In this document: piece by piece, positions 4,602 to 63,373 of the stretch
How positions within the stretch are numbered: the stretch's first letter is position 1
How the letters are laid out: each line of letters starts with the position of its first letter
Assembly: GCA_037951105.1 (NCBI GenBank)
Contig: JBAMJV010003376.1
Span: 62,001 to 126,000, forward strand
Origin: Echinarachnius parma
Lineage: Eukaryota; Echinodermata; Echinoidea; Clypeasteroida; Echinarachniidae
DNA: 64,000 nt
Direction: 5' to 3'
Notes under the pieces: model-generated
Database searches by the model: none
Told to the model about the DNA's origin: nothing
Seen by the model: only the letters and a program-made list of their open reading frames with translations
Translations under genes and position numbers: made by a program

Positions 4602-4633
<32 letters not shown>

Positions 4634-33110: not shown

Positions 33111-33956
33111 TGACGCGGAAGGGCGGGGGGGACAACAGCGGTCGACGTGCCGCCGGGGCCCAGGGGGCCACAGTTCTTCGGTTCACCCCCCGCTCTCGCG
33201 CCAAAGAAAAATGAGAAGTACGAGTAACACCAAACACAAGTAAAAGCGGCGTAGAATTAAGGGTTCATGTAGCTTTATTAACGAAATAAGAATTAAACAG
33301 CAAATTATATCTTCTGAGCTGGGCGAACTGAAAACTAACGAAGTGAAGAGAACTAAAACATGGAGCTGCAATTTGCTTCTTCTCCAACGAAACTCAACTT
33401 AAACTCTTTTTGCCTATAATTCAAATCTCCCGCCCTTTATGAGCGATAAACCTCATCACTTTGACGCAATGCGCGACATTAATCCACCCCTTTTAATTCC
33501 CTTATTTTGGAACTTCATTAATGAGTATGAATGCTTCGTAAGTCGTTCTCGGGAATACTGCACGTGGCAAAATACGATACACACACATTAACTCACACAT
33601 AACACATTCGTATAGGCCTACATATGCACAAACAAAAACACATACACCTCCACAATCGGACCCATCCAATCATAATCCTGGATACAACCCACGTGCATCA
33701 TTCAACAACACCCACATTCCAAGATCCACCCAAGTCACGCCCACCAACAGCATCTCCGAGAACGAGACAATACCCAAGCAGTCTTACTAATTTTAAACAA
33801 AGACCCGTGTCTGCAACCTGCGTCCCCATAATTATATAACAACGACATACCCCCTTGCGCAAGGCTCCCAAAATATCCAAAGTATTTGCCTACTAATTAC
33901 CATCCTAATGTAGCTCTCCATTAACCCAGGCAGAGCCAGAATCCCGTTCCGCTACA
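33111..33956 (-). repeat. 5' LTR of the retroelement
   Basis: 846 bp, TG...CA ended. In the element's direction it is followed after two bases by TGGAGGCC, which could be the start of a tRNA primer-binding site. That is a suggestion only. Confidence 0.9.
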
Positions 33957-34600: not shown

Positions 34601-34737
34601 GGCTCCCTTCAAAGTTGGACAGATGATCTCCCTGTTTGTCGCCACTCTGGCATAGGCTTCTCCAACAACCAGATCTACCGGCCCGATGGAGCCAGGAGCG
34701 AAGAGCACGAGTTTGAAGACAAATTCTTCCACTTTAG
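34601..34737 (+). CDS. TAB1: TAB1 exon a
   Basis: Bounded by TGCAG and GTAACC; ends in phase 2. Encodes SLQSWTDDLPVCRHSGIGFS onward, matching the vertebrate PSWTDDLPLCHLSGVG segment that opens the pseudophosphatase domain. Its last 23 bases plus the donor are repeated downstream (see 34,738-35,180). Confidence 0.93.
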
Positions 34738-37700
34738 GTAACCATAATAACCCTAGTAGAAGTACATGTAAAACTGACTCAGGAATAGCAAGACACATAT
34801 CATCCGGATAGGGGGTTAGTGAGGATCACGTGTTCTAAGTTTGAAGACAAATTCTTCCACTTTAGGTACATGAAATTTTACAAGAACCATAGTACATGTA
34901 CAACTGACTCGGAAATAGCAAGACACATATCATCCAGAAAGGGTGGGGGGGGGGGGGGGGGGGGGGGGGGGTCATACGTTCTGAGTTTGAAGACAACTTC
35001 TTCCACTTTAGGTAATTATAAGAACCCTAGTACATGTACAAAAAATGATTTAAAATTGTTCTAAAACTGTCCTTACAAAAAATATGAGCCTCCTAACATA
35101 CGTGATCCTCAAATTTGTGATAGCAATAACAAGATACATATCATGCGGAAAGAGGGGGTAGTGAGGAGCATGTGTTATGATTACAATTTTATTGTCGACG
35201 AATAATTCAGTTGCCCAATCAGGCAATCAATTAGACCATTCATGAATTTTGACTTGCCCAATGTCATTTTGTACTTGTCCTTTTCAATTGGGCAAGTCTG
35301 AGTGTTAAGCCCTCGTCTATGATTGGGGAATGATCTCAATATTGTATATATTGTTTTAATTCAAACATATAGAGAAACTGACCAGAAATATAATGTGATT
35401 AAAACTGAGCAAAGAAAATGGGATTCCAACGGGATTCGAACCCGAGACCTCCGGATTGCTAGACTGGTGCTCTTACCGACTGAGCTATAGAAAACCCTAT
35501 GACGGCATTCGTCCCAGAAACCCCTTAATTTTCATTGCTCGTGAGGTCAGAAGCTATTATAAACCTGACATAAACCTGAAGGATAGAAATCAACTTGTAT
35601 ATATGCGAGGGATCACCGAAGTGATGCAGCTTTTTAAAATAATTAATTCAAACATATATATTGTTTTGAGAAATTTTGTCAATTTTTGTTCTCTTTTGTC
35701 AAAAGAACTGATCAAGATGACTACCTCTACGCCATCTTTGATGGCTACGATGGGGCTCACGTGCCCAACTTCGCGCACCAGCGACTGCCGGCCGAGCTGC
35801 TCCTTGGCCAGCTAATCGGTGTCCGTGACGATGCAGAGGTGAAGCGGGCCCTGCACCAGTCCTTCGTGACGGTGGAGCGCAGCTTCTTTGAGACCCTGGA
35901 CCAGGTCCTGGCAGAGAGGACCAACCTGAAGCTGTCTCTCCCAGATGTAAGTGGAGAGGATTTCAAACTATTGTTGTTGTTGTTAAGATAGAAATACAGT
36001 AGATCATAGAATCCAGACGTGAGATTTCTTTCTGTGTTTAGTTGATAGGTAAATTGGAAATAACCATCCTGATTGTTCACTCCCCTTAGTGATGGTGAAA
36101 AGTGTCCTTCCAATACCTCAAAAGCCTGCTAGGGTTATGCAGGGTGGATGACTTATTACTTGATGTATAAACTATATTTTATGCATTATACCCTTTTTAT
36201 TTCCCATTAGGGTGTATTAAAGTGAATACCAGTTATTACCAGTTATTAGATGGAGCTAGAAGCCCTGGACATGGAGATGAGTGGAGGCACATCAACTCTT
36301 TAATCATAATTACACATATAATTGTATTGACATTGTTATTCCTTCTCAGGGCGTGAGTGAATACCAGTTATTACAACAGTACCCAATGGAGATGCAGAAG
36401 CTGCAAGCCCTGGACTTGGAGATAAGCGGAGGCACGTCGGCCATCGTTACTCTAATTCATGCCAACAAGCTCTTTGTCGCCAATGTTGGTGAGTCTAATT
36501 CATCTCTACATAATATTCATTTATGGGGGGTGTTTCAGATTTTAAGTTGAACTGAACTCTTAAAGGGACTTAGTAACATTGTCCAATTCCTCAAAATAAA
36601 ATTGTAATTCTAGCGGTTCCCTTATACCTTGTTGTATTCGTATTAACAATAAAATCATGGGACAGGTTTCGGTTTTTCAAATTTTCCTTTCGTTACAAAG
36701 ATATGTATGATTGAAGTATTCAGATAAGAAAAACTCCGGGCGAGTTTTTCTTCCGTGTACAAAGTGAGTGCAGTGAGTTAGTGACTATCACTTTGCATTT
36801 TCGCTCATTTATTGGCCATGCAATGTCCATTTGACTTGAAATTTTCACACAATACCCTGTCGACATATGAGATAACAACAATATACATTGCATCAACCAT
36901 TCATCACTTTTTGCACATGTCAACAAAGTTACTAGATCCCTTTAAGTGGGACCTGACAATTATGGAAAGCCGTTAGTTTCTTTGAAAAATTGTTGAAACA
37001 GTTCATTTAGAAGGCATTCATTTTGATAAAAATCAGTAATATTTGTTATTATCAAAGAACCTTGATTTGATTGATAAAAATTTCTGTTGGAAGTCTCAAA
37101 TACTTGATTTTGTTTGCTTTTGAATATGTCTTTTGAATACAAGCGAAAAAAGCACACTGTTTACCTGGCGAAAAAGTTTGAAAATTGATGTAAGATTTTA
37201 TACCCTACTGCCGATGATTCTGACTCACACTTGTGCCATTTAATAGAGCTGCTGGAACGCTTGCCCATCAAACATTAATATCTCCATAATTAGGGAGACA
37301 TTTGAAAAATCATAGCAGTTGTATTCTTCTGATACCATAAGCCAAAGCTAGCCTTCACAGTTCCATTCATTGTGTCGTGCGTAAGGTGATTCAAGGGCCA
37401 TATTCTGCACCCTAGAGCCAGATTAAACAGAGTAATGTTTGACAGCTTAGCGCAAGCCTCGGCATGGACCACTCAACTGACAACCAGTACTAAATGCTAC
37501 GGTTGAACAACCAGTTCGGATCATTTGTTAGAATTTGTTAGAATGCTAGCTTTAACAGTCCCATTCATTGTATCTTGTGTCAGGTGATTCAAGGGACCTA
37601 CTCTGCACCCTAGAGCCAGCCGGCACCAATGAATTGCGACAACTCAGCGTGGATCACACAACCGACAACCAGTACAAATTGCTACGGTTGAACCAGATTG

Positions 37701-39323
37701 GATCATGCAACAAATTGTATTATTGAAATTTGTAAGAGTTCTAGCTTTCACAGTCCCATTCATTGTATCTTGTGTCAGGGGATTCAAGGGCTCTACTCTA
37801 CACCCTAGAGCCCAACGGCACCAGTAAAGTGCGGCAACTCGGCGTGGATCACACGACCGACAACCAGTACGAACTGCTATGGTTAAACCAGTTCGGATCA
37901 TGCAACAAATTGTAATATTCAAATTTGTTAGAATTCTAGCTTTCACAGTCCCATTCATTGCATCTCGTGTTAGGTGATTCAAGGGCCCTACTGTGTACCC
38001 TAGAGCCCGACGGCACCAGTAAAGTGAGACAGCTCAGCATGGATCACACGACCGACAACCAGGATGAACTGTTACGGTTGAGCCAGATTGGTCTGGACAC
38101 GAATATCCTAGCACCGCAGAAGCTTTTCGGCGACAAGTGCGCCACAAGAACCATCGGTAACTACCTGGTCAAGGGTGGCTACAGGGATCATGTACTCCTA
38201 CGGTGAGTATTATTTTATAACTTTTGATTGTATTTCATATTTTTGGCTAATAATTTGAGCCTTCATCTTCATTGTTAATCAAATTTAGGCCCATTGAAAA
38301 TTACTACACGAAACAAAGAATGTAGAAAACAATTACAAATATCCTTATGGATTCAATCCAATACTTTGAATCTGTCTTAGACATATTCTGCGTAACTTAA
38401 ACACATGTGTCCCATGGTTTGCCATATATTCTTTTACCTTGTAAATGCTTGCTCTACCATACAGGGATGCTAGGAGTGAACCCATCATCCCTGAACCTGA
38501 CATCATAGGAGGTCTGGATGTCAGCAACATGACTGGCTTCCTACTGATGTACTCCAACGGTCTCAGCCTATCCCTGATAGAGGCCACAGGGACCACACAG
38601 GCCAATCTGGACCTAGCCTATATGGCAATGGCTGAGTTTGAGGTCCAGACGACGTTGAGCGGCGTTGCTCAGGGAGTTGTGGACAAGGTCGTGCGGCGCC
38701 ACCACGACAGCTACCTCTCCGGCGGGGAGCGCATGAACATGTGCCGGACGCGAGACGACATGACGCTGATTGTCCGCAACTTTAACTACCCGCTTCGCAG
38801 TCGCGTGGTGACCAGCCCAACAACGGCTCCAGGGCAGCCGACGTTCGCTGTTCAGTTCTCGCCAACCACGCCTCCGGGCACACACCCACCACAGCTATCA
38901 ATCAATGCAAATGCAAGGACACCAGATGCACATCTAATGACGCCCCTCTATGTCCAGGTGGACAACGAAAACGTCCCGATCGACCAACAGCGCTCACCAT
39001 TCAGAGGGGTCATCGCGGGTGAACTGACGCCCCAACCGAGCTTCCCGCAGCCGTATTTCGAGGAAGACCCTCAGCGCACGCCCTCTGAGAGCGAGAGAGA
39101 GGAAGGGGACGGGGATTCGGAACACACCCGCAACTCCAGCAGTACTACGACCTCATACACGCACAGTAGCAGCGAGGAGTCGCAGAGGGTCTTTGACTTT
39201 AACCGCCACGATGAAAATAAGGCAGCGCCGGACGAAGATGGGAAGATTGACCCCTATGTAGACTTCTCAGATTTCTTTATTGCTTACAAGGCTGCATGTC
39301 CAGATGCGTTTTCATCGCAATGA
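34601..39323 (+). CDS. TAB1: TAB1, TAK1-binding protein 1 (five exons; initiator exon not secured)
   Basis: Exons 34,601-34,737, 35,706-35,946, 36,350-36,488, 37,974-38,202 and 38,465-39,323 join in phase to 534 residues; human TAB1 is 504. It opens SLQSWTDDLP, followed by a PP2C-like pseudophosphatase domain. At the far end PYVDFSDFF (residues 512-520 of the visible chain) matches the TAK1-binding motif PYVDFAEFY of vertebrate TAB1. TAB1 is a cytoplasmic adaptor that activates the kinase TAK1 in TGF-beta, IL-1 and related signalling, and binds p38. PP2C landmarks are FDGYDG (57-62), GDSRA (173-177) and RDDMT (345-349). The third metal motif, DGLWD in active enzymes, reads SNGLS, so activity is not expected. 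The N-terminal few codons must lie upstream of 34,600, possibly near 27,130. Confidence 0.95.
34738..35180 (+). repeat. decayed tandem copies of the 3' end of TAB1 exon a
   Basis: GAAGACAAATTCTTCCACTT plus TAGGTA recurs at 34,842 and 34,989 after the true exon end at 34,715. A tail motif AGACACATATCATCC recurs at about 34,790, 34,921 and 35,132. Units are 127-147 bp, the third inflated by a 27-base poly-G run (34,945-34,971). Each copy keeps a GT donor but no acceptor or upstream exon, so it is an exon fragment and not an alternative exon. Confidence 0.85.
35206..35315. repeat. GCCCG family fragment in TAB1 intron
   Basis: TTGCCCAATCAGGCAA, later TTGGGCAAGTCTGAGTGTTA and AGCCCTCG, the closing motif of family G in either orientation. 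Confidence 0.6.
35421..35494 (-). tRNA. tRNA-like sequence, loop AGC (Ala); probable SINE head or pseudogene
   Basis: Read on the minus strand it has TAGCTCAGTCGGTAAGAGC (D arm and A box), an anticodon loop CTAGCAA, a five-base variable loop and GGGTTCGAATCCC (T arm and B box). The internal promoter boxes are intact. The acceptor stem pairs poorly and the anticodon stem has two mismatches, so a working tRNA is unlikely. It lies in a TAB1 intron in antisense orientation. tRNA-derived SINEs would look like this. Confidence 0.55.
35706..35946 (+). CDS. TAB1: TAB1 exon b
   Basis: Acceptor TCAAAAG, donor GTAAGTGG; 241 nt, completing a split Arg codon. Encodes DDYLYAIFDGYDGAHVPNFA and RLPAELLLGQL, matching human FLYGVFNGYDG and RLSAELLLGQL. 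The Asp of FDG, a metal ligand in active PP2Cs, is kept here, whereas vertebrate TAB1 has FNG. This is the only internal coding exon of the gene without a visible partial copy. Confidence 0.95.
36208..36300 (+). pseudogene. partial duplicate of TAB1 exon c (5' part with acceptor)
   Basis: TTCCCATTAG then GTGAATACCAGTTATTA, GAAGCCCTGGACATGGAGAT and AGTGGAGGCAC copy the start of the exon at 36,350, 135 bp upstream. It has an acceptor-like AG but no donor, and a short internal loss shifts its frame. Confidence 0.88.
36350..36488 (+). CDS. TAB1: TAB1 exon c
   Basis: Acceptor TTCTCAG, donor GTGAGT; 139 nt ending in phase 1. Encodes SEYQLLQQYP..LQALDLEISGG and NKLFVANVG, matching human LPPQYQKILERLKTLEREISGG and NKLYVANVG. 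Confidence 0.95.
36560..36945. mobile_element. family B MITE (TTAAAGGGACTTAGTAAC)
   Basis: 386 bp with TTAAAGGGACTTAGTAAC and GTTACTAGATCCCTTTAA ends. It lies inside the TAB1 c-d intron. Non-coding. Relatives: 23,249-23,560, 41,895-42,145 and 58,796-59,180. Confidence 0.88.
37310..37973 (+). pseudogene. three tandem partial copies of TAB1 exon d, period 195-197 bp
   Basis: The intronic marker TAGCTTTCACAGTCCCATTC starts at 37,349, 37,546 and 37,742, and at 37,937 before the real exon. Each copy continues through an acceptor-like AG into GTGATTCAAGGG..., about 115 bases of exon d sequence. Similarity stops at the same place in each copy, after CAGATTGG or its equivalent, and intron-like ATCATGCAACAAATTGT follows. 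No copy has a donor. Substitutions and small indels differ among copies; the two nearest the gene are best preserved. Confidence 0.92.
37974..38202 (+). CDS. TAB1: TAB1 exon d
   Basis: Acceptor CGTGTTAG, donor GTGAGTAT; 229 nt. Encodes GDSRALLCTLEPDG, MDHTTDNQDELLRLSQIGLD and IGNYLVKGGY, matching human NRALLC, VDHTTENEDELFRLSQLGLD and IGDYKVKYGY. The GDSRA wording is that of active PP2Cs, where vertebrate TAB1 has GTNRA. Confidence 0.95.
38465..39323 (+). CDS. TAB1: TAB1 last exon (e)
   Basis: Acceptor CCATACAG; 859 nt to the TGA at 39,321. Encodes the end of the pseudophosphatase domain (PIIPEPDIIGG, GGERMNMCRTRDDMTLIVRN), a long Pro/Ser/Thr-rich linker with SSSTTTSYTHSSSEES, and the acidic tail with PYVDFSDFF. 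The linker would correspond to the p38-binding and phosphorylated region of vertebrate TAB1, but it is poorly conserved. Confidence 0.95.
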
Positions 39324-39412
39324 ACCTCAAGTATATTTTAGCCTTGATTCAAGTACAATTTGTCAGGATTTTAGTTGAAACAATAAGAAGAAGACGGCAT
39401 GATTGCCCTTTA

Positions 39413-40070
39413 AGTAGACTTCTCTGATTTCCTTGTTGCTTTAAAGGGCAATGCAACTCAAGAAAAGAGTTAATACTACTTTATACATCGTAATATTCCT
39501 GTTTATTATATGTAACCTTACTCCGACTCAGATTTCTGCTTTGGAAGAAAAATGTGAAAACTCTATAGGCTTTACCACTATTTACGCGAACACTGGAGGC
39601 CGCCATTATTAGGTTTGCACAGACTACATGCACTAATGCATTTCAATAGCACCCATTCAACCATTGTTATGGACAACGGGTATCAAATAGTGGTAAAGCC
39701 GATAGAGTTTTCACATTTTTCTTCCAAAGCAGAAATCTGAGTCGGAGTAATGTTACATATAATAAACAGGAATATTACGATGTATAAAGTAGTATTAACT
39801 CTTTTCTTGAGTTGCATTGCCCTTTAATACAAGGCTGCATGTCCGAATGCTTTTTCATTACATTGAACCTAAAATTTATCAGGGATTTTAATAGAAACCA
39901 AAAATGAAGATGGTATGATTGACCATTTACTGACAATATGATTGACCACAAGGATGCATGTCCCAGTCTGGATGCTTTTTCATTTCATTGAACCTAAACT
40001 CTGTTTCAGCCTTGATTTAAGCATATTTTATCAGGGTTTTAGTAGAAACTGAAAGAGCAAACTGACCCAC
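39413..40070 (+). repeat. two decayed tandem copies of the TAB1 C-terminal tail and 3' UTR
   Basis: The coding end GTAGACTTCTCAGATTTCTT (39,259) recurs at 39,413. AAGGCTGCATGTCC (39,289) recurs at about 39,831 and 39,951, each followed by TTTTTCAT, GAACCTAAA and a CAGGGTTTTAGTAGAAAC-like block. Not counting the hairpin inserted in the first copy, spacing is about 120-155 bp. The copies are after the stop codon and have lost the frame. Confidence 0.85.
39441..39827. mobile_element. family C foldback MITE, 387-bp near-perfect hairpin
   Basis: TTAAAGGGCAATGCAACTCA at the left is answered by its complement at the right, and the arms pair over about 155 bp each with few mismatches. It interrupts a duplicated TAB1 tail copy, so it is younger than that duplication. 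In a TAB1 transcript that runs this far it would form a long double-stranded stem. Confidence 0.9.
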
Positions 40071-40155
40071 GAAATGCTTATATTTCGCTTTCTTTTCAAG
40101 GAACTGATGGTCGTGTCAAATTTCTGTGATGGACGTTGACATGGTTACACTAGAT

Positions 40156-40719
40156 TTAAAGGGATAGTTGAGTTTTGGTAGAGAGGGCGCTAGACTACTT
40201 ATTTTTTTTGTGAGGTAATGAAAAACTGAGTGTAAAATTTGAAAGAGCATAATATTTAAACAATAAAATCATCTTTGTTTGATCAAAATCGGTTCAGAGA
40301 CGGCTGAAATATCCATAAATATAACAATTTGTAATAAACCCGGGGCCCCGGGTTTATTAGAGAATTTTGAACCAGCCGTTAAAAATTTTTAAAAAATGCT
40401 TCCTCTTTTCAAAAAGTTACAAAATAGGTATTTAAATAGTTGTTGGTTATTTCTCTATCTAATCACTATTTCAACAAAGCATCACATGCACAATATTTAT
40501 TTCAAAATGGTTGAAACCGATGAGTGTTTAGAGAGCGCCCTCTTACGTTTTAATGGCTCTTTTTGAATGATAACATGATCTTTAATACGTCATTTGTAAT
40601 TTGTTGTTCCTTTCTAGTTATAAATATTAGTTTGTAATGTAATGATGCAGGTTTTGGTTACTAAAATTCAGTTTCACCAAAACTATACTCTCCTTACCAG
40701 AACTCAACTATCCCTTTAA
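40156..40719. mobile_element. family A MITE downstream of TAB1
   Basis: Ends TTAAAGGGATAGTTGAGTTT and CTCAACTATCCCTTTAA; the inner body matches the other family A copies in reverse. Non-coding. Confidence 0.85.
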
Positions 40720-40756
40720 GTATCAGGCTCCTAAAGCTCTTTGAAATCCACCTTTT

Positions 40757-40975
40757 TGACTGGGGCCCATTGGGGCAAGTCAAAATAAGATTTTTCAAAT
40801 TCTAGTGGCCCAAAACCTAAATCTGGTGGCCCCAAACAAAAAGAAAAATTACAAATTCTGTTATATTTGGTTGCCACTTTGGGCCAGTTGAATTTAGCAT
40901 CGATTAATTTTGGTGGCCCAAAGCTAATTTTCAGTGGTTCTTGGTCATTTGGCCTGTGCTAATTTCCAGCACTGT
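40757..40975. repeat. GCCCG family copy, diverged
   Basis: Repeated GGTGGCCC and GGGCCAGTTGAATTT motifs with TTTCCAGCACTG at the end. No clean terminus. Confidence 0.5.
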
Positions 40976-41229
40976 CTGAATATGAAAGTTTTATTGTCCC
41001 TTTCAAAGCAGTTATTCTTTTTGTACATGTGCTTCCAAATGAAAGAATACTAATTTGGAAAAAAACGTTTTTGGAAACACCAGGCTTCAATGGCTTATAA
41101 TTGTATCATCAGTTAATTTTGTGTAGATGCCTGTTGCCAAATTGAATTACAACTCCATGAACGACAGCATGCATGGTGAGATGTGATATGAGACATCACA
41201 TGTATTACAAACAAGAGGGCCTGATGGTG

Positions 41230-41900
41230 TGGTGTTGTAGCAAGGTTTATGTATGGCCTGGAAAACCTTGAAAGTCATGGAATTTGACTTTAGGGTATTT
41301 CCAGGCCTTGAAAGTCAGGGAAATTGTAAAAAAAATTATCTCTTTGGCCATGCAAGGTCATGCAATTTCATTTTATCTGATTTCTTCGTTTCTGGAATAA
41401 AATTAATTTGTTACGAAAAGAACTGAAAGAAGTTAAAGAACCTGGTTAACCGTGGTGAGAAGTCATGTAAAAGTCATGGAACTCTTGCTCGTAAGGTCAT
41501 GGAAAGTCATGTAATATGCACTGGCCCGCTGGCCCGGGGCCAGTGAAATTGCACTTCGGGCCAGCAAAAATGTATGAAAGTAATATTTTGGTAGCCCGAT
41601 CGGGCAAGCAGATTTTCAACCTGACATTGACAAATTAGAACAATCTTGTTTTCTTCCATGTCATGCTTCATCTATAATCACAGATTTGATCAGGAAAGAG
41701 CGATATTTTGAATAGTAAAAAGTTAACTCATGAAATAAAATTTTTCGTGCCAGTAAATTTTTCTTTCGGGCCACCAGAAAGGGGGAATAAATTATTTCAC
41801 TGGCCCGACTGGGCCACTGACAAAAAAGTTAAGTGTGAAGCCCTGTAATATGACTGAAAAGTAAGGGAAAGAACCCTGCATAGTCATACTGTCTATAAGG
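41230..41900. repeat. AAAGTCATGGAA repeat hosting a GCCCG element
   Basis: Variants of AAAGTCATGGAATTTGA and GGTCATGGAAAGTCATG recur from 41,268 to 41,515, and the repeat resumes after the inserted element at 41,853. Confidence 0.6.
41519..41844. mobile_element. GCCCG-palindrome element (family G) with 8-bp target duplication
   Basis: 326 bp from CACTGGCCCGCTGGCCCGG to GTGTGAAGCCCT, flanked by the exact duplicate GTAATATG (41,511-41,518 and 41,845-41,852). An 8-bp duplication is the hallmark of hAT transposons. The interior is non-coding and contains GCCCGATCGGGCAAG. A near-full copy is at 11,300-11,615 and a reverse one at 63,739 to the window end. Confidence 0.85.
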
Positions 41901-42145
41901 ATATTTATGAATGAAGTGTTCAGATGTTGAACTATCCACTGGATAGTCCTAACTGTGTACAAAGTCAGTGCAATGAGTCAGTGACTATTACTTTGCATTT
42001 TTGCTCATTACTCAGCCATATAACGTCCATTTAACTTGAACTTTTCGCACAATACCCAATGGGCGTATCCGATAACAACAATCTACATTGTATCAACCAC
42101 TCATCACTTTTTGCACATGTCAACAAAGTTACTAGATCCCTTTAA
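41895..42145. mobile_element. family B MITE, right part
   Basis: Matches 36,690-36,945 and ends GTTACTAGATCCCTTTAA. The left third is missing. Confidence 0.75.
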
Positions 42146-42149
42146 ATTA

Positions 42150-45020
42150 ACAGGTAATCCCAATAGACGGGTTAATAAACGTGTGGAGGCTTGGGTAATG
42201 ATTTTAAAATGCACGTCAAACCTATTTAAGTGAGAGAGTTCTAGCCTCATATGCCTAAAACCCTGCTAGCTTAGTTCCATGCTAAGTCTATTTCAAATGG
42301 TGTGATTAGGTGAGCAAAAAACAATTTTCGTAGTCCCCAACCAGGGTTAGCTGGGTAAGCCTTAGAGACACACTAATAATAATAAGAATATTCTCGATTT
42401 ATATAGCGCCTAATATGATTGATAGTCATCTCTTAGCGCTTTACAATGATATTATTACCCCGGTCATAGGATACACTAAGTTAACCCTAGTTAGCAACTA
42501 TAAATCATGTGCTCTGTTCTTAGCCATGTCATCCAAAATAGACTTGGCATGCCACCAAGCTAGCAGGCTTTCATGAATATCTTTCTTTGATGTTGAGAAT
42601 GAATGTTGATATTGTTTATAATCATTGTAGGGTTTCAAAATATCTAATTTATTGTGTACTGGTATTCATGGAAATATTTTCAGGGTTGATGCGATATAAA
42701 TAATTTGAACCATTAATCAAAATGACCCTAGTTTTTAAATGTATTTTTGTTGTTGGTGTTTTAAATACTTATTTTGACTTTCTATGAAGTGATATAGACA
42801 ATGTCGATTCTGTCAAATTTTAAAATAACATTGATTTTCCACTTGAAAGGGTTATCTACAGATAAAGGTGAGTTGACAAAATTGATATTGATTAGAAATT
42901 TAAAAAATCATGTTTTAAATCAAGCACAAAGATAAACTGAGAAAAAAATATTTTCATAATTATTGTTTTATATATTTGTATGATTGGGTATTGTTTAATT
43001 ATTAAATTTGAAAATCTTGCCATGATACGTAGGTCAATTATGAGATGTCATTCGATATAATTAACACTGATATAAAAAAAAAATTGTTTTTAAAAAATGT
43101 TCTAGTCATAGAGATTTTCATTTCATAATTTGTGTAACTCTGATAATACAAAATGTTAATGTAGCTCAACATATTTTACTGTTCGCAAGGGTTTCATTAG
43201 TGTTGCAGGGAAATATTTATTTAACGTCAGTACGTCTCTTTAAGAGATATTTCTTCTCTTAATTGTTTTTATTTGTATTCATTTTTTTTAGGGGGGGGGG
43301 GGTTCTTTTCATGCATAATTACATTATACTTATGAATATGTTTAACCTAAGCATTTTATACTGAATCATGTTTTGCATACTATTTGATGGGACCATAAGA
43401 TTATTTACTTTAGCTCTTCTGTAATTTTTCTATAACTGTTCACTTTTGTTCTACTTCATATATTTATACCAATCTTATTTGTATTACTATGGAAGGGGAT
43501 AAAGGGTTACATATCTTTTCCGCTTATTATAGAGGATGTTGATTTAAGCATAAAATATTTGGCTAATTTGTTTATTTCCCCCCATTTAAACAAAATATAT
43601 ATACCATTACTACATGTACTCATTCATGGAATTATGTATATACGATACATTGGTGTCTACAAATGGAGGAACATATTTCTTAGGGAGACATTCAGTAAGC
43701 CTTGAGAACATTTTAAAATTTTTTATCTATTTAAATATTGAGATGTGTGCATGGATACGTGTAATTGTGTATGTTTGTTTGTGCATGGACTCTTTGTAGG
43801 GTCCATGGTTTGTGCACGTACGTGTATATTTGTAAAAAAAATGTGTATATTGCAGAAGATTATGTACAATAGATGTAAATTAAATCAGATAAATTCATGT
43901 ATAGCTACATGTATGAATCCTTACCTGAAGTAAAATGTTTACATTTGAATTATTTGTGTATTTTTTTTGTCTATATGAATAGCAAGATATGTAAGTTTAT
44001 GGCTGGAATTCACAAAGGTAGTTTATGTCAACCATGGTTTACATAGCTATAGACTGCTGCTTGTAGACCAAGTTAAAAAGAGTAAATTACATGTTTTAAT
44101 TGCTAACGACATAGCAGTTGGTGCATGCTAAACAGTGCACTAACTAAATTTTCCATTTCTGTGAACATAAGACTTATTGGCCCGAATTCTCAACTTGTGG
44201 CTCAACTTGTGCCTGGCCTAAAAGACAAAGACTACCGGTAAAAAAAAGTAAGAAGTGTAAATTCTTTCTCCATCATTTAACAAATGGTGTTCCTAAATGT
44301 TAACCATGGTTTAGATAAACCTCCTTCGTAGATTCCAGCCTATGAATCAATAAACTGGTAAAACTTATTGGTGTAAATTTGTGCAAAGTTTTGCAGATTA
44401 GCAACGGCCTTCATTTTGCAACCATCCAATGGGGAATGTTACCCTACTTACCCAAGTAAATGTTTCCAGTTTGTTGATTCATAAACTACACTATTCTGGA
44501 TGATAATAATGCGCATCAAATTAAAGAGCCATAAAGAGCTGCGATTAAATGCAAGTAAGAAAATATGCGCATTACAGCCAGAGTTGCGGATTTGGGCGCA
44601 TTAATTGCAACGTTGCAATGTGTATTATGTATAATGTATATCTATATTAGTATACAGATTTCAAATTCTGTGTTCATAAACTGTACACTGAGATATCGGG
44701 TAACTTAACAAAAACCTTGGAAAAACAAAAACTTTCTTTTCTTAGTTAATTGTTTTAAATGAGTGACCACTAAATTTGAATGAAAATGAAAGTGAAAATG
44801 AATGCAAACTATTTTTATGTAACTGATGCAAAATGTTTAAAGTGAAACCAGTAAAGTGTCTAACTCCACGAAAATTACTTGGAGCTTCCACATTTCTCTT
44901 CTACCGTGTTGTTTGGCTTATGGTAAGAGAAGAATAAAATAGGGTTAGATTTGTTTAAATGCCCCTTAAGTATGACGATGTCTAATTACTGTCTTTTTCC
45001 TTGTGTATTGGAATTAAACA
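42150..45020. other. gene-free intergenic DNA
   Basis: AT-rich. It holds a TATAGCGCC...GCGCTTTACA repeat at 42,385-42,465, a poly-G run at about 43,291 and a diverged family E copy at 44,519-44,620. No gene is supported. Confidence 0.5.
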
Positions 45021-45023
45021 CAT

Positions 45024-45182
45024 GCCCCATTGCAGAAAGAGATACAATCGATTGTAAGTTACAATTAATTGTAAATCAGGAAATTTGTGCGTTTCAACCA
45101 ATCAGATTTGCTCATGTAGGACACATGATCTGACTTACAATTAATTGTAAGTAACAAGCGATTGTATCTCTTTTTGGGCCCT
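45024..45182. mobile_element. family E palindromic MITE
   Basis: GCCCCATTGCAGAAAGAGAT at the left and ATCTCTTTTTGGGCCC at the right; arms contain TTACAATTAATTGTAA. Best preserved member of the family here. Confidence 0.8.
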
Positions 45183-45797
45183 TTCCTAGTATTAATTTCA
45201 TGGTTCGCAAATGTACTATCAGATATATGTTTTTCAATTATAGTTATTAAGTGGCCATGCTGTCATAACTTTATACAAAATACATGTTTACAAATCAGCC
45301 TGAAATTCAGACATTTTCAATTATAATTTCTAAACATGTCAGATCATGTATTTGCAGTCAACAAGAACTTACTATAACACAAGCTCAAATGGATGTAGTG
45401 TACCATTTTTGTCATTGCTGAATATCACACTGATCCATATGGTAAATACCAATAAGACAAAAGAAAAGGTACACTATTCAAGTCATATACTGTATATATA
45501 ATAAAAAATGCCTTTATTTCATAGCATCACAAATACCAGTAATGATATTGCATCAATAAAATGACAGAATTATGACAGGAAAGGGTCTAAACCTAAATCT
45601 AAAATATGTTCCTTGGACTGGTGTTTCTTAGCTTTATTTACATACTATCCAAAGTTTGGGTAATCCAGCTTGTGTATAAATATGGTAGGATGAATCCACA
45701 ACACACAGACGTAATATACAGTACAATCACACCAGTATACACATGACATATCTATTGATAAATAACATCAGTGGTTACTCATATTACAGAGCACTAG

Positions 45798-45883
45798 TAC
45801 AGTTGAACCTCGTTATAATGAGATAATTGTTTCTGGTCCATGGTCATGGTCCCTAGCTCTTGTTATAACGAGGTTCCACTGTA
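45798..45883. mobile_element. 86-bp miniature element with GTTATAACGAGGTTCCACTG ends
   Basis: TACAGTTGAACCTCGTTATA and ATAACGAGGTTCCACTGTA form inverted ends closing on TA. This terminus is typical of pogo/Tigger-type elements, which use a TA target. Confidence 0.75.
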
Positions 45884-45889
45884 CTCAAC

Positions 45890-47970
45890 ACATACATGTA
45901 TATAATGAGGATTACAGACTACAATGGAAAAACCATAGTTTGAATAAAGAATTCGTAAAGAGCTGTGTTTTACACAATTGTAGAGGAAAATATGTTGATT
46001 GCCAAAGAGAATTCTGGGTAACTTTTTCAACTGACAAATGTAAATTGTAAGAAATTGTAAGACATTTCTACATGTATACAAAATGACAGATACGCATACA
46101 TCTACTTGTCTTAATTGAAGGGCAGTGTGGAAAATTATCAAAGGTAAGCAACAAAGTTCTGATGTTAGAAATATGAATATAAGGAGATGTGTTTTATGTA
46201 TGATTTTCAAGGTATTGTCCATCACAATTCCCTCACGATACAACATTAATTGGTTAACAATCAAAGGCAAGATTTCATTTCTAATGGAACCGACAGTTAC
46301 ACATAAACTAGGTGCCTGGTGCGTATCTTTCTAATCTAAATGAAATAAAATGAAATAAATAAATGAAATCGGTTTTAATTATTAAAGCCACCTCAATCTA
46401 TAAAACCAGAGCATGCCCACTTATTCAATTCATGATGCAGCAGAAATGCAGCATCAAATCAAGGTTTTACAAAACCTTACTGTTATCACATTCACACCTG
46501 GATTTACACCCACCATCAGATTAGGGCACCATTTATACACGCACAAGGCTCAAAGTTAGCACTGGCCTAGGGTTACCAACCTTTCTTTAGGACCAAATTT
46601 GACGTGCCAGTTGGGGCAAACAGATATAACAATCAGGCTTGAGGCTGTTAATGTTTGTCGTTGCCTGGGCAACCAGAAGACAAAGTAACTTTCTAACGTT
46701 GCCCAAATTGTTTGAAATCAATTGCAATGATAATTTGTAGCACTTTCTATGGATTTTTTTTGTAGCCATTTCGTTTGTCCATTTAATAAAACAGCTCATT
46801 TTGAGTATCTTTGCGTTTACAACAGAAGTGCAACAACAACATTTTATAGAACAGATGAATTTGGTGTAATTTCTATCATCTTCCACAGGGCTTGAAATCA
46901 GCAAATTCAGCACTGACCTGCTGGTCATTGTCTTTTGGACCAACCAAATCTTGTAATTTGACCATAAAACTTGGAAAAGTCTTGATTGTACTTTCCTGAT
47001 GGACTACCCTGGGACAATGGATCTTTTTTTAGCACTGCCTTACACATAAACTGTGGTGCGCTAGTGCACTACTGGATTTGTAAGCGAAAAAACTCCAAAA
47101 GGATCATTTGGATCTAGATTTTCTAAATGTTGTGGTTTACCTTTGCCATACAATATACAATTTTCAGCTTCATGATCAATTACTTTTGTAAAGAAAGCAT
47201 GTACGGAAAGATCAAATAAAATATATAATTAACAAAACAAATGGAAAATATACACAAGTGAATATGTTGGGGTCACTGTGCGTGAGATCTTGTGCAAAAC
47301 AAAAACAAATAAGACACAACTTGGTTACAAAAAAAAATAATCATGAGTTACTGGGTACCTCATCTGTTAGGGAGCATTTGGAAAACTTTGGTAGTAAGTT
47401 GACCAAATCTTTGCCTTTTTGTTGATTACCAACCGCTTCTATTTCCCTTCCAAATTGCCATTTAAATTACATGTTTTGTAAAGAAGAGTTTAAAGTGCAA
47501 ATACAAAATCAGACCTTTTAATTTGGCTTCAGAAAAAACAAGTGGAACAAATGTTAATATTTCTGAAGAAAAAAAAAAGGTGGAGGATATATGAAGAAAA
47601 AAAATTTGTGCAATTCACTGAACTCCTTGGCAGTGGGCAAGGATAGAATGAGGAAGCAGAGAAATTACAAAATTTGTGCTTGCATTAAAATAGTAATGAC
47701 TATCAATGATGCAACGATATGTCAGTAATTTCCTATCCACTACTAAGTAGTTTTTTTCTTCATCTTTTTAAATTTTAACACACTAATAGGCTGACTCACA
47801 AATGCGACGTAAATAATAATATACTAAAAAACTTTCTGTATTCACACTGTACACGAAAATGAATTGATTTGATTGAGAAAAAAAGAAAAGAAACAAAGAA
47901 AGAAATAAGAGATAATCATTTTGGATCAGCAATAATTCCATAATTTTCACATTAAAATTGGCAGCAGACA
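45890..47970. other. gene-free DNA between convergent genes
   Basis: A worn GCCCG-like repeat (GCACTGGCC, GGACCAAATTTGAC, GACCAACCAAATCTTG) spans about 46,550-47,035. Otherwise nothing is recognisable. The 118- and 135-codon minus-strand frames have no known motif and the first lies in the repeat. Confidence 0.45.
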
Positions 47971-47973
47971 TCA

Positions 47974-48267
47974 TCATAACCTCTTCAAAGTCCTCTTTTT
48001 GTCCTTTTTCTTTTTCTCCGCGAGCGCGACTTTCTTGTCTCCCGCGTGTTTCTTCGCGGCGGGACCCTGTGCGTTGACTCCCGACGTTGACGGGTTACAG
48101 TCTTCGTTTTCCCGCGACTCCTTTGACGACCGGTGAGGCTGTGCGTGGATTTCTGTCATCATCTTCGCCCGTGAGAAGTACGTGTCGTACTGCTCTAGTA
48201 ACAGCTTGCCTGCCTCCTCATTCAGTGCCGACTCGGGGTTGGGGTAGATTAGCAAACATTTGATTGT
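47974..48267 (-). CDS. UBE2S: UBE2S exon 4 (C-terminal)
   Basis: Acceptor TCTAG, 294 nt to TGA at 47,976-47,974. Encodes [20 protein letters not shown], the last UBC helices, a variable acidic/Ser linker, [10 protein letters not shown] and the basic tail. AAKKHAG matches human MAKKHAG. Confidence 0.96.
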
Positions 48268-51200
48268 CTAGAGAAAAGAAACAGACGGAAAGATAAGAAA
48301 CATATTTCAATGACCTGGCAATAGTTATAAATGATCAAAACCTTCCTTTTTTCTCTCTCTCTCTTTAAATTATCAAGGTAGTAAGGACAAATATGGCAGG
48401 ATATCTTAGATTTATTTTTTACTTCACATTGTGTTTTATTTGTTTATTTCTGACAAGCAACTTCTTCTTTATGATTATAAATAACATGAGGAAACCCTTA
48501 TTGGTCCATTGTATTCTTACTAAAATAAACTTTAACAAACGTGTCAAACACATGTTTGACAATATATCTGAGCTTCTTATTTAACAAGGTTTGACAATCT
48601 CTTCCGAGACGTTCCCTCGGCACAACTCTGAAGACAGTCAACCTGTTCGAAACGTCGAGCCCCTCCTACCACCCATCCTCTCATTACAATAACTATACCA
48701 GCGCTGTAGTTCTTATTAGAACTACAAGCTCAAGAAATAATACCAACATTCCTTTCCAGGACTACCAGAGTCTTTTTTAGGACTATCCTAGAAAGAATAC
48801 AAAAAGGACTCTCTAATCCTCCCTTCTCACATGGTGAAACTGCAAGCGGACTGTATGTTGGAAGAGAATGCCAGAGGTTCCACTGTAATCCCTAACTTAC
48901 CAGAAGGAGGTGTTTGATGCCCAGGTCCGCCTTCCAGTCTCGCTTCAGCGTGTTCACGCAGATCTCACCATTATTGGCTACGTTTGGATGGAACACTTTG
49001 GTCAGGAAGAAGCCCTTTGGAGGTGCCTTCGGGAAATCTTTGCCCAATATCAGCTTGACCCGGAACTGACCCGCTGCATATGGTGTACCAGCTATGGAGA
49101 GATATTTATATGAAATGATTAGAATTTGCCTAAAATACTATTTTGATTATAAAAAAACAGATCTCCCCGTTACTGGCAACGTTTGGATGGAACAAGAAGC
49201 CTTTTAGAGGTGCCTTTGGAAAGTCTTTTCCCAATACCAGCTTGACCCGGAACTGACCCGCTGCATATGGTGTACCAGCTATGGAGAGATATTGATATGA
49301 AATTATTAGAATTAGGCAAAATACTATTTTGACTATAATGAAACAGATATCCCCATTATTGGCTATGTTTGGATGGAACACTTTGGTAAGGAAGAAGCCT
49401 TTTGGAGGTGCCTTCGGGAAATCTTTGCCCAGTATCAGCTTGACCTGGAACTGACCCGCTGCATATGGTGTACCAGCTATGGAAAAACATATAACAATTA
49501 AACAATATAATATGATATTATTGGAAAAAAGCGAATAGGTAAAATACTATTTTGACTATTTAATGAAACAGATATCCCCATTATTGGCTACGTTTGGATG
49601 GAACACTTTGGTCAGGAAGAAGCCTTTTGGAGGTGCCTTCGGGAAATCTTTGCCCAGTATCAGCTTGACCCGGAACTGACCCGCTGCATATGGTGTACCA
49701 GCTATGGAGAATCAAATGAATAGTATAAAAAGATTAGAATATAGTAATCAAAGAGGCAAAAAAATGAAAAGTTGATTATGTTGAACTAGATCTCTATATT
49801 TTGGACTTGGGAAAGATTGGATGGATAACATTGGTCAGGAAGAAGCCTCTTTGGAGGCAGGTGTAGACCCTTTGCCATATCGTGTGATATGGACTCATAG
49901 CCAATGTACATTAGGCATTACGGCAAAAAAAAAAACACCTTAATATGTGAAATACCCATCACTACGATATACCATACTCACGTAATATGATGCAACAAAA
50001 GATGGAAGCATTGAAATCAAGTCTTTTATCACATGAAACAGTCCAAAAAGTGTTTTTTCCTGTCGAAATGAAGTCCATAAAATCCACTGAAATTCCTGTG
50101 TGTATGTAATACACGAGTTCACTATCGGAAACTCAATTTTTGATGTCGTACGCAGATGGCGCTATATATTTTCACGTATCGATAATTCGTGGTGGCGATT
50201 AAAAAAAACAAACTTGAGTTTCTAAATTTTGGAGACCTCGACTAGCCTCGATAATCAATGAGTTTTATATTTATTTTGCATTGCCTTTCTCAATACGCCA
50301 TGCCTAAATACCTTGTAATGTCATGATCGGTAACAGGGTGCCACACCTATCTTTATTCAGGACGAAGACAATTTGAGCAAGTATTTTCTCGGTTTGATTA
50401 CCGAGATGAGACATGAATAATGGGCTTCATGGATTTGGTAAATTGATTGCGGCTTGAACGAAAACTAACGTGGTGTAATCGGAGTAGAACCGATATCGGT
50501 ATTGAATGCGTGTATTATATCGCGAAGACGTTGTTTACATTGCCATTCTACAGGTCGGTGTGTTGGAAATACTCAGTAGACGAAGAGAAGGTGAGCATAA
50601 AGTTCGTTTTTTCTGTTATTTACAAATAATGAAGGGACCTAAAACATAGTCTAAATTTGCTATTGCAGTGTATACACAAGACTGTGTGAGAATGCGGGGC
50701 GAAACAATCGGTATTAAATATCAAATTTGGATGTCTTTTAAAAAATGTTCGCAAGTCAAAAAAGACCTATCGGTATTACACAGTAGTAACGCAAGGGGCT
50801 TACGCAGTAAGCCCCTTGACTTGCAGGGGTGCTTTGGAGGTGCCTTTGGGAAATCTTTGCCCAATATAAGCTTGACCCAAAACTGACCCGCTGCATATGG
50901 TGTACCAGCTATGGAGTTCTAAGGAAAATAAAACCAATATGGAATAATTTAGCACTAAGACAGAATGAGAAAAAAAGCTTGGTTATGTTAACAGCAATGT
51001 CCCGTTATTGGCTTTGTTTAGATGAAATACCTCGGTCAGGAAAAGGCTTTCAGAATAGCCTTTGGGAAATCTTTGCCCAAGATCAGCTTGACCCAGAAGT
51101 ATCGTGTTCCAGTAATGTGGAAAAAGAAGAAACAGGACATAATTAGAAGGACAAGTACTAATTTTTGTCAAGATACATGTTGAAACAAATTTCCCTCTTT

Positions 51201-52425
51201 CTAGCAATGTTTGGATGGATGGAAATCTTTGCTCAATCCCGGAACTGAACCAGTGCATGGTGCACCAGCTAGTATGCCTATGGAGGGACAAATGGGCATC
51301 ATAAGATTAAAACAAGGTCTGAATGTATGTTTAGATAGTTTATCCAGAATTTACCAAAAGCACATTGTGTGCCAGCTTTGAGAGGGAAAAGAAAATATTA
51401 GATTTGAAAGTAAAATAAATTATAAGAAATAAAATAATTTATTCTCAAAATTTATACAAGTTAAACAATACAACAATGAAATATAAAAGCCTTATCAGGT
51501 CGATACCTTTGTAGGGGGGACGTGCCATAAATATTAAAAAAAATCATCACTTGATCATGGGACAATATGGTAATTAAAAAAAAAAGATATTGGGATTAGT
51601 GGCTTATGATCACAGAAAGTCTCAAGACTCAAGTCAGAGAGTAAATTTGAACAAATTTGATTTAATTTATTCTCTGACTTAAAGAGTTTTGATTTTCTGT
51701 TTTGTTTATACCTGGCCCTTCTATCGTTGCACGGATGTCTGTGATGTCCTGCTCATTTGGGAAGATCTTGATTCCCTCGGGCGGACTCGATGACAGGTCA
51801 GCGATCTCTCTCGTGATATGGCGGATGACTTTTGGGGAGAAGTTTTCCATGTTTGACGAACTCTGAGTAAAGACAAGAGGACACAATAAAAAAAGACTTG
51901 ATTAAGCAAGGTGCTACATTATCTATAGTTACTTCACCCAAAATATAGGCTAGATTAATATAATTATTCATTTATTATGGGCATTCTCTTCCGAAACAAC
52001 ACAATCATTCATACATTTTTTATTTTAAATAATAAAAGAGATGATGCCAGATTTATCGGTTAAGTTTCATCTTACATGCAATTGGGCAGAAACATAATTA
52101 GTCATACTTTATATAAAGTCAGCTTGCAGTTTTCATAGCAATTAAAATTAAAGAAAATAGGCAAAAAACAATCATTCACATTCATTGCACACGTACACAA
52201 CAACGGCAAAGCGTCAACCGTTCAACGGCAGAGCGTCAAACCGCGGCTACAGTGCAGTGATAATGACACAAACAGACTCAATTCAATCAGGCATTCAACT
52301 TCGTTCAAAAATCACTCAATTACAAGCCATGTTCTTCTCATTTTCACCACGATCGCAAATCTCAAATCAAACGTAATTTTACAGGCGGATACTTGAGAAT
52401 TACGACTTACCCCTGACATGGACAT
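47974..52425 (-). CDS. UBE2S: UBE2S, E2 ubiquitin-conjugating enzyme (complete, four exons)
   Basis: Exons 52,411-52,425, 51,712-51,862, 48,901-49,091 and 47,974-48,267 (minus strand) join in phase to 216 residues; human UBE2S has 222. UBE2S extends Lys11-linked ubiquitin chains on substrates of the anaphase-promoting complex. The UBC fold shows [19 protein letters not shown], the FHPNV motif (His about 90) and the catalytic Cys100 in NGEICVN, followed by [16 protein letters not shown] and [13 protein letters not shown]. The C-terminal extension is lysine-rich and ends [11 protein letters not shown]. In human UBE2S the KKRALRRL tail binds APC2/APC4, so the LKRL end is functionally meaningful. 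Intron 2 (49,092-51,711) is filled with partial copies of exon 3. Confidence 0.96.
48590..48860. repeat. GAAACGTCGAG repeat and AGGACTACC repeat fragment in UBE2S intron 3
   Basis: Contains CTGAAGACAGTCAACCTG then TTCGAAACGTCGAGC (48,628-48,660), and a block with TTTCCAGGACTACCAGAGTC and CTCACATGGTG. A matching block with TTTCTAGGACTACCATAGTC and CTCACATGGTG is at 54,580-54,650. Confidence 0.5.
48901..49091 (-). CDS. UBE2S: UBE2S exon 3 (catalytic exon)
   Basis: Acceptor CTCCATAG, donor GTAAGT; 191 nt. Encodes [36 protein letters not shown] and [16 protein letters not shown]. It is the only copy in the cluster with both the catalytic Cys and the following RDW helix plus a donor. Confidence 0.96.
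49158..49278 (-). pseudogene. partial copy 1 of UBE2S exon 3
   Basis: From the acceptor-side CTGGTACACC through GTAAGCTTCTTG-like sequence to GGGGAGATCTG. It covers GTPYAAGQF to the Cys region, lacks a 10-base block in the middle (frame lost) and has no donor. It ends where intron-like TTTTTTTATAATCAAAATAG begins. Confidence 0.9.
49343..49476 (-). pseudogene. partial copy 2 of UBE2S exon 3
   Basis: Open from the acceptor to GGGGATATCTG (NNGDIC), with [20 protein letters not shown]-like content. It stops being exon-like right after the Cys codon and continues into TTTCATTATAGTC. No donor. Confidence 0.9.
49568..49701 (-). pseudogene. partial copy 3 of UBE2S exon 3
   Basis: Almost identical to copy 2 and to the true exon up to GGGGATATCTG, including intact FHPNVANNG. 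It has the same 3' breakpoint and is open but without a donor. Confidence 0.9.
49812..49880 (-). pseudogene. worn fragment of UBE2S exon 3 (copy 4)
   Basis: Only the middle is recognisable on the plus strand: TTGGATGGATAACATTGGTC, AGGAAGAAGCCTCTTTGGAG. Confidence 0.65.
50829..50908 (-). pseudogene. partial copy 5 of UBE2S exon 3
   Basis: The acceptor-side half is preserved (plus strand GGTGCCTTTGGGAAATCTTT to TGCATATGGTGTACCAG). The part beyond is replaced by unrelated sequence with a CAGTAAGCCCCTTGAC palindrome. Confidence 0.85.
50995..51113 (-). pseudogene. partial copy 6 of UBE2S exon 3
   Basis: Plus strand GTTATTGGCTTTGTTTAGAT through GGGAAATCTTTGCCCAAGAT to TTCCAG. More diverged and frame lost. 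Confidence 0.8.
51190..51271 (-). pseudogene. partial copy 7 of UBE2S exon 3
   Basis: Plus strand TAGCAATGTTTGGATGG, AAATCTTTGCTCAATCC, GCATGGTGCACCAG. A large internal loss leaves about 80 bp. A last trace, TTGTGTGCCAGC, is near 51,366. Confidence 0.7.
51712..51862 (-). CDS. UBE2S: UBE2S exon 2
   Basis: Acceptor TTTACTCAG, donor GTATAAAC; 151 nt ending in phase 1. Encodes [20 protein letters not shown] and [20 protein letters not shown], matching human VENLPPHIIRLVYKEV and PPDGIKVFPNEEDLTDL. Confidence 0.95.
52411..52425 (-). CDS. UBE2S: UBE2S exon 1 (MSMSG)
   Basis: ATGTCCATGTCAGGG followed by the strong donor GTAAGT; joins in phase 0 to exon 2. Two in-frame ATGs are present (52,423-52,425 and 52,417-52,419) and a third Met lies in exon 2 (MENF). 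The first is chosen because it is upstream-most. Human starts MNSNVENL, which aligns to SSNMENF. Confidence 0.75.
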
Positions 52426-59461: not shown

Positions 59462-59745
59462 GCCTCCACACTAACCTTTTTCTCTACTAGCCCGTTCAGG
59501 CAAGTAAAATCATAAATGTACACATTTTACTTGCCCAAACAGAAAATGTACTTGCCCGCTTACTTCTAGATGAGATTTACATGTATGGAATTACACTCTA
59601 CTATCGCAATTGAAGAAAAATTTAATTTGCCCGATCGGGCAAGCAAACTAGACCTTTTTTTATGAAATTTTTCTTGCCCGACATTCATTTTTACTTGCCC
59701 CGGGCAAGCAGGCAAGCGGGCAAGTGTTAGTGTCGAGCCCTGTTG
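59462..59745. mobile_element. GCCCG family element, aquatic-genome type with TTGCCC motifs
   Basis: Holds the 18-base palindrome-like TTTGCCCGATCGGGCAAG, several CTTGCCCG motifs and closes with GTGTCGAGCCCTG. Inserted in the tandem array. Confidence 0.7.
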
Positions 59746-63355: not shown

Positions 63356-63373
63356 TCCCTTCACACATGCACT

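What the first reader, a model, noticed from the sequence alone, without database searches (positions are those of the whole stretch)
34601..51400. Both host genes carry partial tandem copies of their own exons at five separate exon boundaries
TAB1 exon a (3' end), exon c (5' end), exon d (5' end, three copies) and the last exon (3' end, two copies), and UBE2S exon 3 (5' part, about seven copies) are each accompanied by decayed partial duplicates. The sequence shows that each duplicated segment spans one exon boundary plus adjacent intron, and that one intact exon always remains. A tandem duplication across a single splice site leaves the message readable, so this is the subset selection would tolerate if short duplications of 120-230 bp were frequent genome-wide. 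Five independent cases among nine coding exons is far more than I would expect in a typical animal gene. It may reflect an unusual repair or replication slippage process in this lineage.
Basis: partly seen in the sequence, partly recalled or inferred. Interest (0 to 1): 0.85.

Follow-up and report, generated by a model that had tools for sequence, protein, structure and literature searches.

The report
Decayed partial exon copies beside exons
Two ordinary animal genes carry worn tandem copies of bits of their own exons, left by short DNA duplications that ran over one exon edge without breaking the gene; the kind of event is known, and only how densely the copies sit at exons here is unusual.

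Summary
TAB1 and UBE2S carry local direct partial copies of five exons, with units of about 120-230 bp. Four of the copied segments cross a splice site; the fifth (TAB1 last exon) covers the end of the coding sequence plus 3'UTR. In 5 of 5 loci the copies lie on the side where a one-edge tandem duplication leaves the gene readable. Older copies carry stops or frameshifts. The longer arrays grew by later amplification, so they are not many independent events. Tandem-type clusters touch exons more often than random placement gives (5 of 14 against 0.8 expected, P=0.0008). For old copies this is partly ascertainment, because a constrained exon keeps them recognisable. For a young subset chosen after the fact the excess is weaker (3 of 8, P=0.008). 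New here: in UBE2S copies 2-4 the exon part is much better conserved than the intron part, which suggests exon-anchored exchange or, less likely, some use. The event type is published (PMC4974935). No genome or relative could be compared.

The parts
34601..34737 (+). TAB1 exon a (intact)
   Evidence: AG before, GT after; protein match to TAB1 structures
34837..35176 (+). two downstream copies of TAB1 exon a 3' end plus donor and intron (a1 34838-34943; a2 34983-35048, with a further intron match at 35122-35176), G-run 34941-34971 between them
   Evidence: a1 90/109, a2 59/69 identical columns; exon part 0/28 and 1/28 mismatches, intron part of a1 11/73, donor GT kept in both
35706..35946 (+). 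TAB1 exon b (no copy found)
36194..36311 (+). upstream copy of TAB1 exon c 5' part plus acceptor
   Evidence: 93/130 columns identical to 36333-36457; frame broken by gaps
36350..36488 (+). TAB1 exon c (intact)
37344..37914 (+). three upstream copies of TAB1 exon d 5' part plus acceptor and intron, period 195-198 bp (d3, d2, d1)
   Evidence: d3 has 3 stops, d1 and d2 each differ by 16% from the intact exon
37974..38202 (+). TAB1 exon d (intact)
38465..39323 (+). TAB1 last coding exon with stop codon
39387..40048 (+). two downstream copies of the end of the TAB1 coding sequence plus 3'UTR; the first split by a palindromic insert 39436-39832
   Evidence: 51/66, 48/62 and 109/153 identical columns; in-frame stop in the first; palindrome 82.9%
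47974..48267 (-). UBE2S last coding exon
48901..49091 (-).
49158..49701 (-). UBE2S copies cp1 (49158-49278), cp2 (49344-49476), cp3 (49569-49701): exon 5' part with acceptor; no good donor seen after them
   Evidence: exon-part mismatches to intact 11/121, 7/133, 4/133; acceptors
49807..49857 (-). UBE2S fragmentary copy cp3b
   Evidence: 51 columns, 84% to the intact exon
50833..51275 (-). further UBE2S copies: cp4 (50833-50908, cut off after 76 exon bases, hairpin-like sequence follows by eye), cp5 (about 50986-51117), weak cp6 (about 51180-51275)
51712..51850 (-). UBE2S first coding exon (no copy found)

Best explanation
Short local tandem duplications (units about 120-230 bp) happened at several points in two ordinary genes. 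Each duplicated segment ran from intron (or 3'UTR) into one exon, so one complete exon remained and the message stayed readable. In the four splice-site cases the spare piece has a splice site on one side only and is expected not to be recognised as an exon. The spare pieces then lost most constraint. In two places (TAB1 d, UBE2S) the tandem array grew, and in UBE2S its units probably exchanged sequence, with the well-conserved exon part as the natural anchor. The copies most likely have no function. Shown here: segment structure, side rule, decay of the older copies, array periodicity, exon/intron discordance in UBE2S. Inferred: slippage in replication or repair as first step, unequal exchange or conversion as second, lack of function.
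For: Direct repeats with steady periods and shared junctions: TAB1 d 195/195/198, UBE2S 187/198/225. Side rule met in 5 of 5 loci. Decay: stops or frame-breaking gaps in d3, cp5, c and last-exon copies. In TAB1 d, exon and intron parts do not differ significantly in divergence (19/116 vs 7/79, p=0.14; 19/116 vs 8/66, p=0.52). The three d copies share states absent from the intact exon (CAGTAC for CAGGAT, AACCAG for AGCCAG), so later copies came from an already changed one. UBE2S cp2-cp3, mismatches plus gap openings: exon 3/133, intron 30/83, p=1.5e-11. Similar duplications where no exon was recognised: 15811-16208 (86%), 22526-22752 (91%, with G-runs), 63361-63665 (84%).
Against: Exon-touching clusters exceed random placement (5 of 14 vs 0.80 expected, P=0.0008; 5 of 6 in the gene region vs 1.17, P=0.0013); the young subset is still high (3 of 8, P=0.008). 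A uniform process with decay does not predict this. UBE2S cp1-cp4 keep frame and acceptor, and 8 of 15 changes that I place on copy branches are synonymous against 0.24-0.29 expected (P 0.01-0.04), more than free decay gives. TAB1 d1 plus d2 also lean that way (21 of 38 synonymous against 0.37-0.46 expected, P 0.02-0.18, not independent). No reads, transcripts or relatives could be examined.
Confidence: 0.76

Rival explanations
1. Pure ascertainment: duplications fall evenly over the window, and those touching exons are noticed because the exon is recognised and held still by selection. This concerns the exon excess only and can be true together with the best explanation.
For: At 0.20 and 0.25 changes per site per lineage simulated intron-only duplications are detected 50% and 9% of the time, exon-anchored ones 96% and 61%. 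The exon c and last-exon copies are of that old kind (71-77% identical columns).
Against: TAB1 a (intron part 11/73), TAB1 d (7/79) and UBE2S cp1 (7/65) are young enough to be seen anywhere (detection 0.96-1.0 up to 0.15 per lineage), yet 3 of 8 young clusters touch exons (P=0.008) and none of six gene-region clusters is intron-only.
Confidence: 0.4
2. An exon-biased duplication process in this lineage: exons act as preferred anchors or breakpoints, for instance because introns of the two parental chromosomes differ too much for recombination to use them.
For: Exon excess in the window and in the young subset; exon-restricted similarity among UBE2S cp2-cp4.
Against: One window and two genes, chosen after the fact; tandem duplications without a recognised exon also occur (15811, 22526, 63361). 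The first breakpoints lie in an exon on one side and in intron or 3'UTR on the other, which homology between exons alone does not explain.
Confidence: 0.15
3. Some UBE2S copies are used: as alternative acceptors or short alternative ends that regulate the gene.
For: cp1-cp4 keep the acceptor (TCCATAG before the exon part) and the reading frame. Exon parts of cp2-cp4 are better conserved than their introns. Synonymous changes are in mild excess: 8 of 15 on copy branches, P 0.01-0.04.
Against: No good donor follows any of them (read by eye). The frame meets a stop soon after cp3, and after cp2 and cp1 at 49130. Seven of 15 changes on copy branches still alter the protein. The five copies and the intact exon share history, so the counts are few and not independent.
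Confidence: 0.1
4. Assembly artefact: two diverged haplotypes joined in tandem.
For: Exons are the most similar parts between haplotypes, so false joins would overlap there; the G-run 34941-34971 could disturb assembly.
Against: Alleles would both be intact coding sequence; here copies end at a fixed exon point, differ by about 3-29% in the aligned parts, and several carry stops or indels. Four-unit arrays at a steady period are not expected from two haplotypes.
Confidence: 0.04

Closest known systems
Tandem genomic duplication across an intron-exon boundary, potato RdRp gene (PMC4974935; passages seen, including parts of the abstract)
   Different: In potato the duplicate became a new spliced intron through a cryptic donor; here no new intron can be shown and the copies appear inert.
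Tandem exon duplications found by aligning exons to their own genes (PMC9013439; passages seen; it cites a 2002 study reporting about 10% of animal genes with tandemly duplicated exons)
   Same: Extra exon-like stretches near the parent exon, many unannotated.
   Different: That work looks for duplicated exons that may be expressed or mutually exclusive; here only one edge of each exon is copied.
[quoted passage not shown] passages seen)
   Same: Partial, local duplication touching exon sequence.
   Different: There the duplicated piece lies inside the coding exon and carries a proto-splice site; the paper notes that the footprint of duplication may be lost.
Internal gene duplication (Gao and Lynch 2009; not held; known here only as cited in PMC4974935)
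   Same: Segmental duplications inside genes, cited there as commonly observed.
   Different: Not read, so no comparison of rates was possible.

Membership tests
Tandem duplication across one exon-intron boundary | Copy is a direct repeat next to the parent and includes both exon and flanking intron sequence | tested here: met
   TAB1 a, c, d and UBE2S
Tandem duplication across one exon-intron boundary (TAB1 last exon only) | Segment crosses a splice site | tested here: not met
   Coding end plus 3'UTR; the other four loci do cross one. The last exon is therefore not filed under this heading
Tandem duplication across one exon-intron boundary | A complete exon with its splice sites remains on the predicted side | tested here: met
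   4 of 4 splice-site cases
Mutually exclusive tandem duplicated exons | Each copy is a complete exon with acceptor and donor | tested here: not met
   Copies hold only one exon edge
Mutually exclusive tandem duplicated exons | Copies are spliced into mRNA | not testable with these tools
   No transcript data
Intron gain by tandem duplication | Duplicate supplies a new spliced intron | not testable with these tools
   No transcripts or relatives; the copies lie within introns or behind the stop codon
False duplication by haplotype mis-assembly | Copies are near-identical intact alleles | tested here: not met
   Cut at fixed exon points, about 3-29% diverged, several with stops or indels

The most novel reading that the evidence does not exclude
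In this lineage short tandem duplication is tied to exons: exon edges are copied several times more often than introns, and the copies keep exchanging sequence through their exon parts while their introns drift, so many genes would carry a halo of partial exon copies that can feed new splice sites and exons.
Probability: 0.12. Interest if true: 0.6.

Novelty: new member of a known kind. Interest (0 to 1): 0.33.

Why it matters
If the density holds genome-wide, this would be a convenient system in which to watch raw material for new splice sites, introns and alternative exons arise and decay, and to test whether exons are preferred sites for short duplications. As it stands it is a clear local example of a known event, harmless because it copies only one exon edge.

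Tried and rejected
Chance similarity was rejected (best E 6e-7 or lower at each locus). Processed (RNA-derived) copies were rejected for the four splice-site loci, since the copies carry intron sequence. Haplotype mis-assembly was judged unlikely. The tolerated-subset idea alone was judged insufficient (no intron-only cluster among six in the gene region). Six regions with other local duplications (1900-3450, 12500-13450, 15700-16320, 22350-22950, 31800-32200, 63200-64000) were looked at by ORF listing; apart from a CCHC ORF at 31800-32200 none looked coding to my eye, which is not a full test; other clusters, such as 3321-5394 and 59742-60080, were not looked at. Relatives: TAB1 last exon and UBE2S last exon against viral contigs and genome contigs gave 3, 31, 342 and 109 pattern matches, none a relative by tblastn. 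I did not try metagenome contigs (cap stated as 0). Literature: seven searches, listings capped at 10-20 rows; four papers opened: PMC9013439, PMC4974935 and PMC2891723 by passages, PMC5589949 by abstract and outline. Within those listings I saw no report on this gene pair or on a lineage-wide halo of partial exon copies.

Weak points of my own tests. The random-placement test uses eight exons with ends within a few bases of those and omits the unlocated TAB1 start exon; the 39829-39998 cluster counts there as not touching an exon although it consists of last-exon copies. The young subset of eight was chosen by me after seeing the list: from the 14 clusters I dropped 3321, 12632, 31881, 36194, 39231 and 39829. 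The exon/intron comparison depends on counting gap openings and on phase: by mismatches alone cp3-cp4 is not significant (5/76 vs 11/74, p=0.12), while cp2-cp3 (p=1e-8) and intact-cp3 (p=5e-5) are; with each exon part paired to its downstream intron, cp2-cp3 becomes 3/133 vs 11/65, p=4e-4. The synonymous totals for UBE2S cp1-cp4 (21 synonymous, 8 not) count one base just beyond the copied part three times; without it 18 of 26, P 0.001-0.01 against the mixture expectation, sites shared between copies counted repeatedly. After this check I moved the 'used copies' rival from 0.07 to 0.10 and the best explanation from 0.78 to 0.76. Microhomology at the breakpoints was not measured.

Full report
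What is there. The region holds two convergent host genes: TAB1 on the + strand (five coding exons placed, 34601-39323; the exon with the start codon was not located) and UBE2S on the - strand (three coding exons, 51850-47974). Identity rests on matches to solved structures: TAB1 5nzz, E 2e-113; UBE2S 6qhk, E 1e-73. The eight exons join into open frames, with AG or GT at 13 of 13 splice ends.

The copies. Self-comparison of the whole window and gapped alignments give five loci with local direct partial copies: (i) TAB1 exon a, 3' end plus donor plus intron, two copies downstream; (ii) TAB1 exon c, 5' part plus acceptor, one copy upstream; (iii) TAB1 exon d, 5' part plus acceptor plus intron, three copies upstream with period 195-198; (iv) TAB1 last exon, end of the coding sequence plus stop plus 3'UTR, two copies downstream, the first split by a palindrome of about 390 bp; (v) UBE2S middle exon, 5' part plus acceptor plus intron, five clear copies (cp1-cp5) and two fragments, all upstream in gene sense.

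Side rule. A tandem duplication that crosses only the 5' edge of an exon leaves the last unit joined to the rest of the exon, so spare copies lie upstream; one that crosses only the 3' edge leaves them downstream. This holds in 5 of 5 loci. In the four splice-site loci a spare piece has an acceptor without a good donor, or the reverse, and exon definition (general knowledge) would pass over it.

Decay and array growth. TAB1 d3 has three stops and 16 inserted bases; UBE2S cp5 differs by 24% over 39 codons and has stops in its frame; the c copy and the last-exon copies are frame-broken or carry a stop. d1 and d2 are stop-free but 16% changed, with 21 synonymous and 17 nonsynonymous differences together; the expectation for a free copy beside a constrained exon is 37-46% synonymous, observed 55% (P 0.02-0.18, the two copies not independent). 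The three d copies share changes absent from the intact exon, so the array grew from an already changed copy: one founding event is enough. UBE2S cp1-cp3 share a junction directly after the GAGATCTG or GATATCTG end of the exon part.

Exon/intron discordance in UBE2S (mismatches plus gap openings). Intact-cp1: exon 12/121, intron 8/65, p=0.63. Intact-cp3: 4/133 against 21/64, p=2e-8. cp2-cp3: 3/133 against 30/83, p=1.5e-11. cp3-cp4: 5/76 against 23/74, p=1e-4; by mismatches alone the last is not significant (p=0.12) and the other two are (5e-5 and 1e-8). The intron stretches of intact-cp3 and cp2-cp3 align no better by mismatch rate than shuffled sequence (0.22 and 0.29; shuffled mean 0.24); that they are homologous rests on shared blocks seen by eye, and if they are not, the discordance would mean separate duplications with other intron ends. 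TAB1 d shows no such discordance (p=0.14 and 0.52). Two causes are possible: exchange between units anchored in the exon part, or constraint on the copies. Of the 19 variable sites among intact and cp1-cp4, 12 are synonymous; setting aside four that I place on the intact (functional) lineage, 8 of 15 are synonymous against 0.24-0.29 expected for free change (P 0.01-0.04). That is a mild excess with seven protein-changing differences left, so I favour exchange and keep use of the copies as a minor rival.

Is the exon bias real? Clusters of tandem-type repeats (offset up to 400 bp, at least 46 bits and 50 columns) number 14 in 64 kb; 5 touch exons against 0.80 expected from random placement (P=0.0008), and in 34-52 kb 5 of 6 against 1.17 (P=0.0013; the sixth consists of last-exon copies). 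A simulation shows why old exon-touching duplications are over-seen: detection of intron-only and exon-anchored pairs is 1.00 and 1.00 at 0.10 changes per site per lineage, 0.96 and 1.00 at 0.15, 0.50 and 0.96 at 0.20, 0.09 and 0.61 at 0.25, with 0.04 for unrelated pairs. The c and last-exon cases belong to that old class; TAB1 a, TAB1 d and UBE2S cp1 do not (intron parts 11/73, 7/79 and 7/65 mismatches). Keeping eight young clusters (chosen by me after seeing the list), 3 touch exons, P=0.008. The window was picked because it looked striking, so this is suggestive only. Duplications of similar size where I recognised no exon (15811-16208, 22526-22752, 63361-63665) indicate that the process is not confined to exons.

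Mechanism. Most likely short tandem duplications by slippage in replication or repair, retained when they copy only one exon edge, then amplification in the two longer arrays and, in UBE2S, exchange. The first step is inferred; arrays and discordance are shown. A G-run separates units at 34941-34971, and G-runs also sit inside 22526-22752, which may mark a slippage-prone context in those two places.

Known or new. [quoted passage not shown] Tandem exon duplication is reported as common in animals (PMC9013439, passages). The copies here fail the test for mutually exclusive exons because each has only one exon edge. Whether the density is unusual for the species is open: no genome, relative or transcript was available.

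Noticed in passing
28391-29223 and 33111-33956: Direct repeat of about 840 bp, 96.8% identical, with an ORF holding CCHC motifs by eye between (31652-32116, - strand): looks like a fairly young LTR-type element just upstream of TAB1.
   Followed up: no
12552-12662 (+): Vault RNA match, 41.1 bits against a gathering score of 34; vault RNAs are best known from deuterostomes (recalled), a weak hint at the phylum.
   Followed up: partly
39436-39832: Long palindrome (82.9%) inserted in a TAB1 last-exon copy; its flanks read TTTAA on both sides, which suggests a piggyBac-type TTAA element (name recalled).
   Followed up: partly
35420-35495 (-): tRNA-Ala-like sequence in a TAB1 intron, possibly part of a short interspersed element.
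   Followed up: no
34941-34971 and 22526-22752: Long G-runs at the joins between tandem units in two unrelated places.
   Followed up: no
15811-16208 and 63361-63665: Tandem duplications (offsets 249 and 147 bp, 86% and 84% identical) with no recognised exon.
   Followed up: partly
30385-31152: Minisatellite with a 151-bp unit, 3.4 copies by TRF plus diverged sequence beyond.
   Followed up: no
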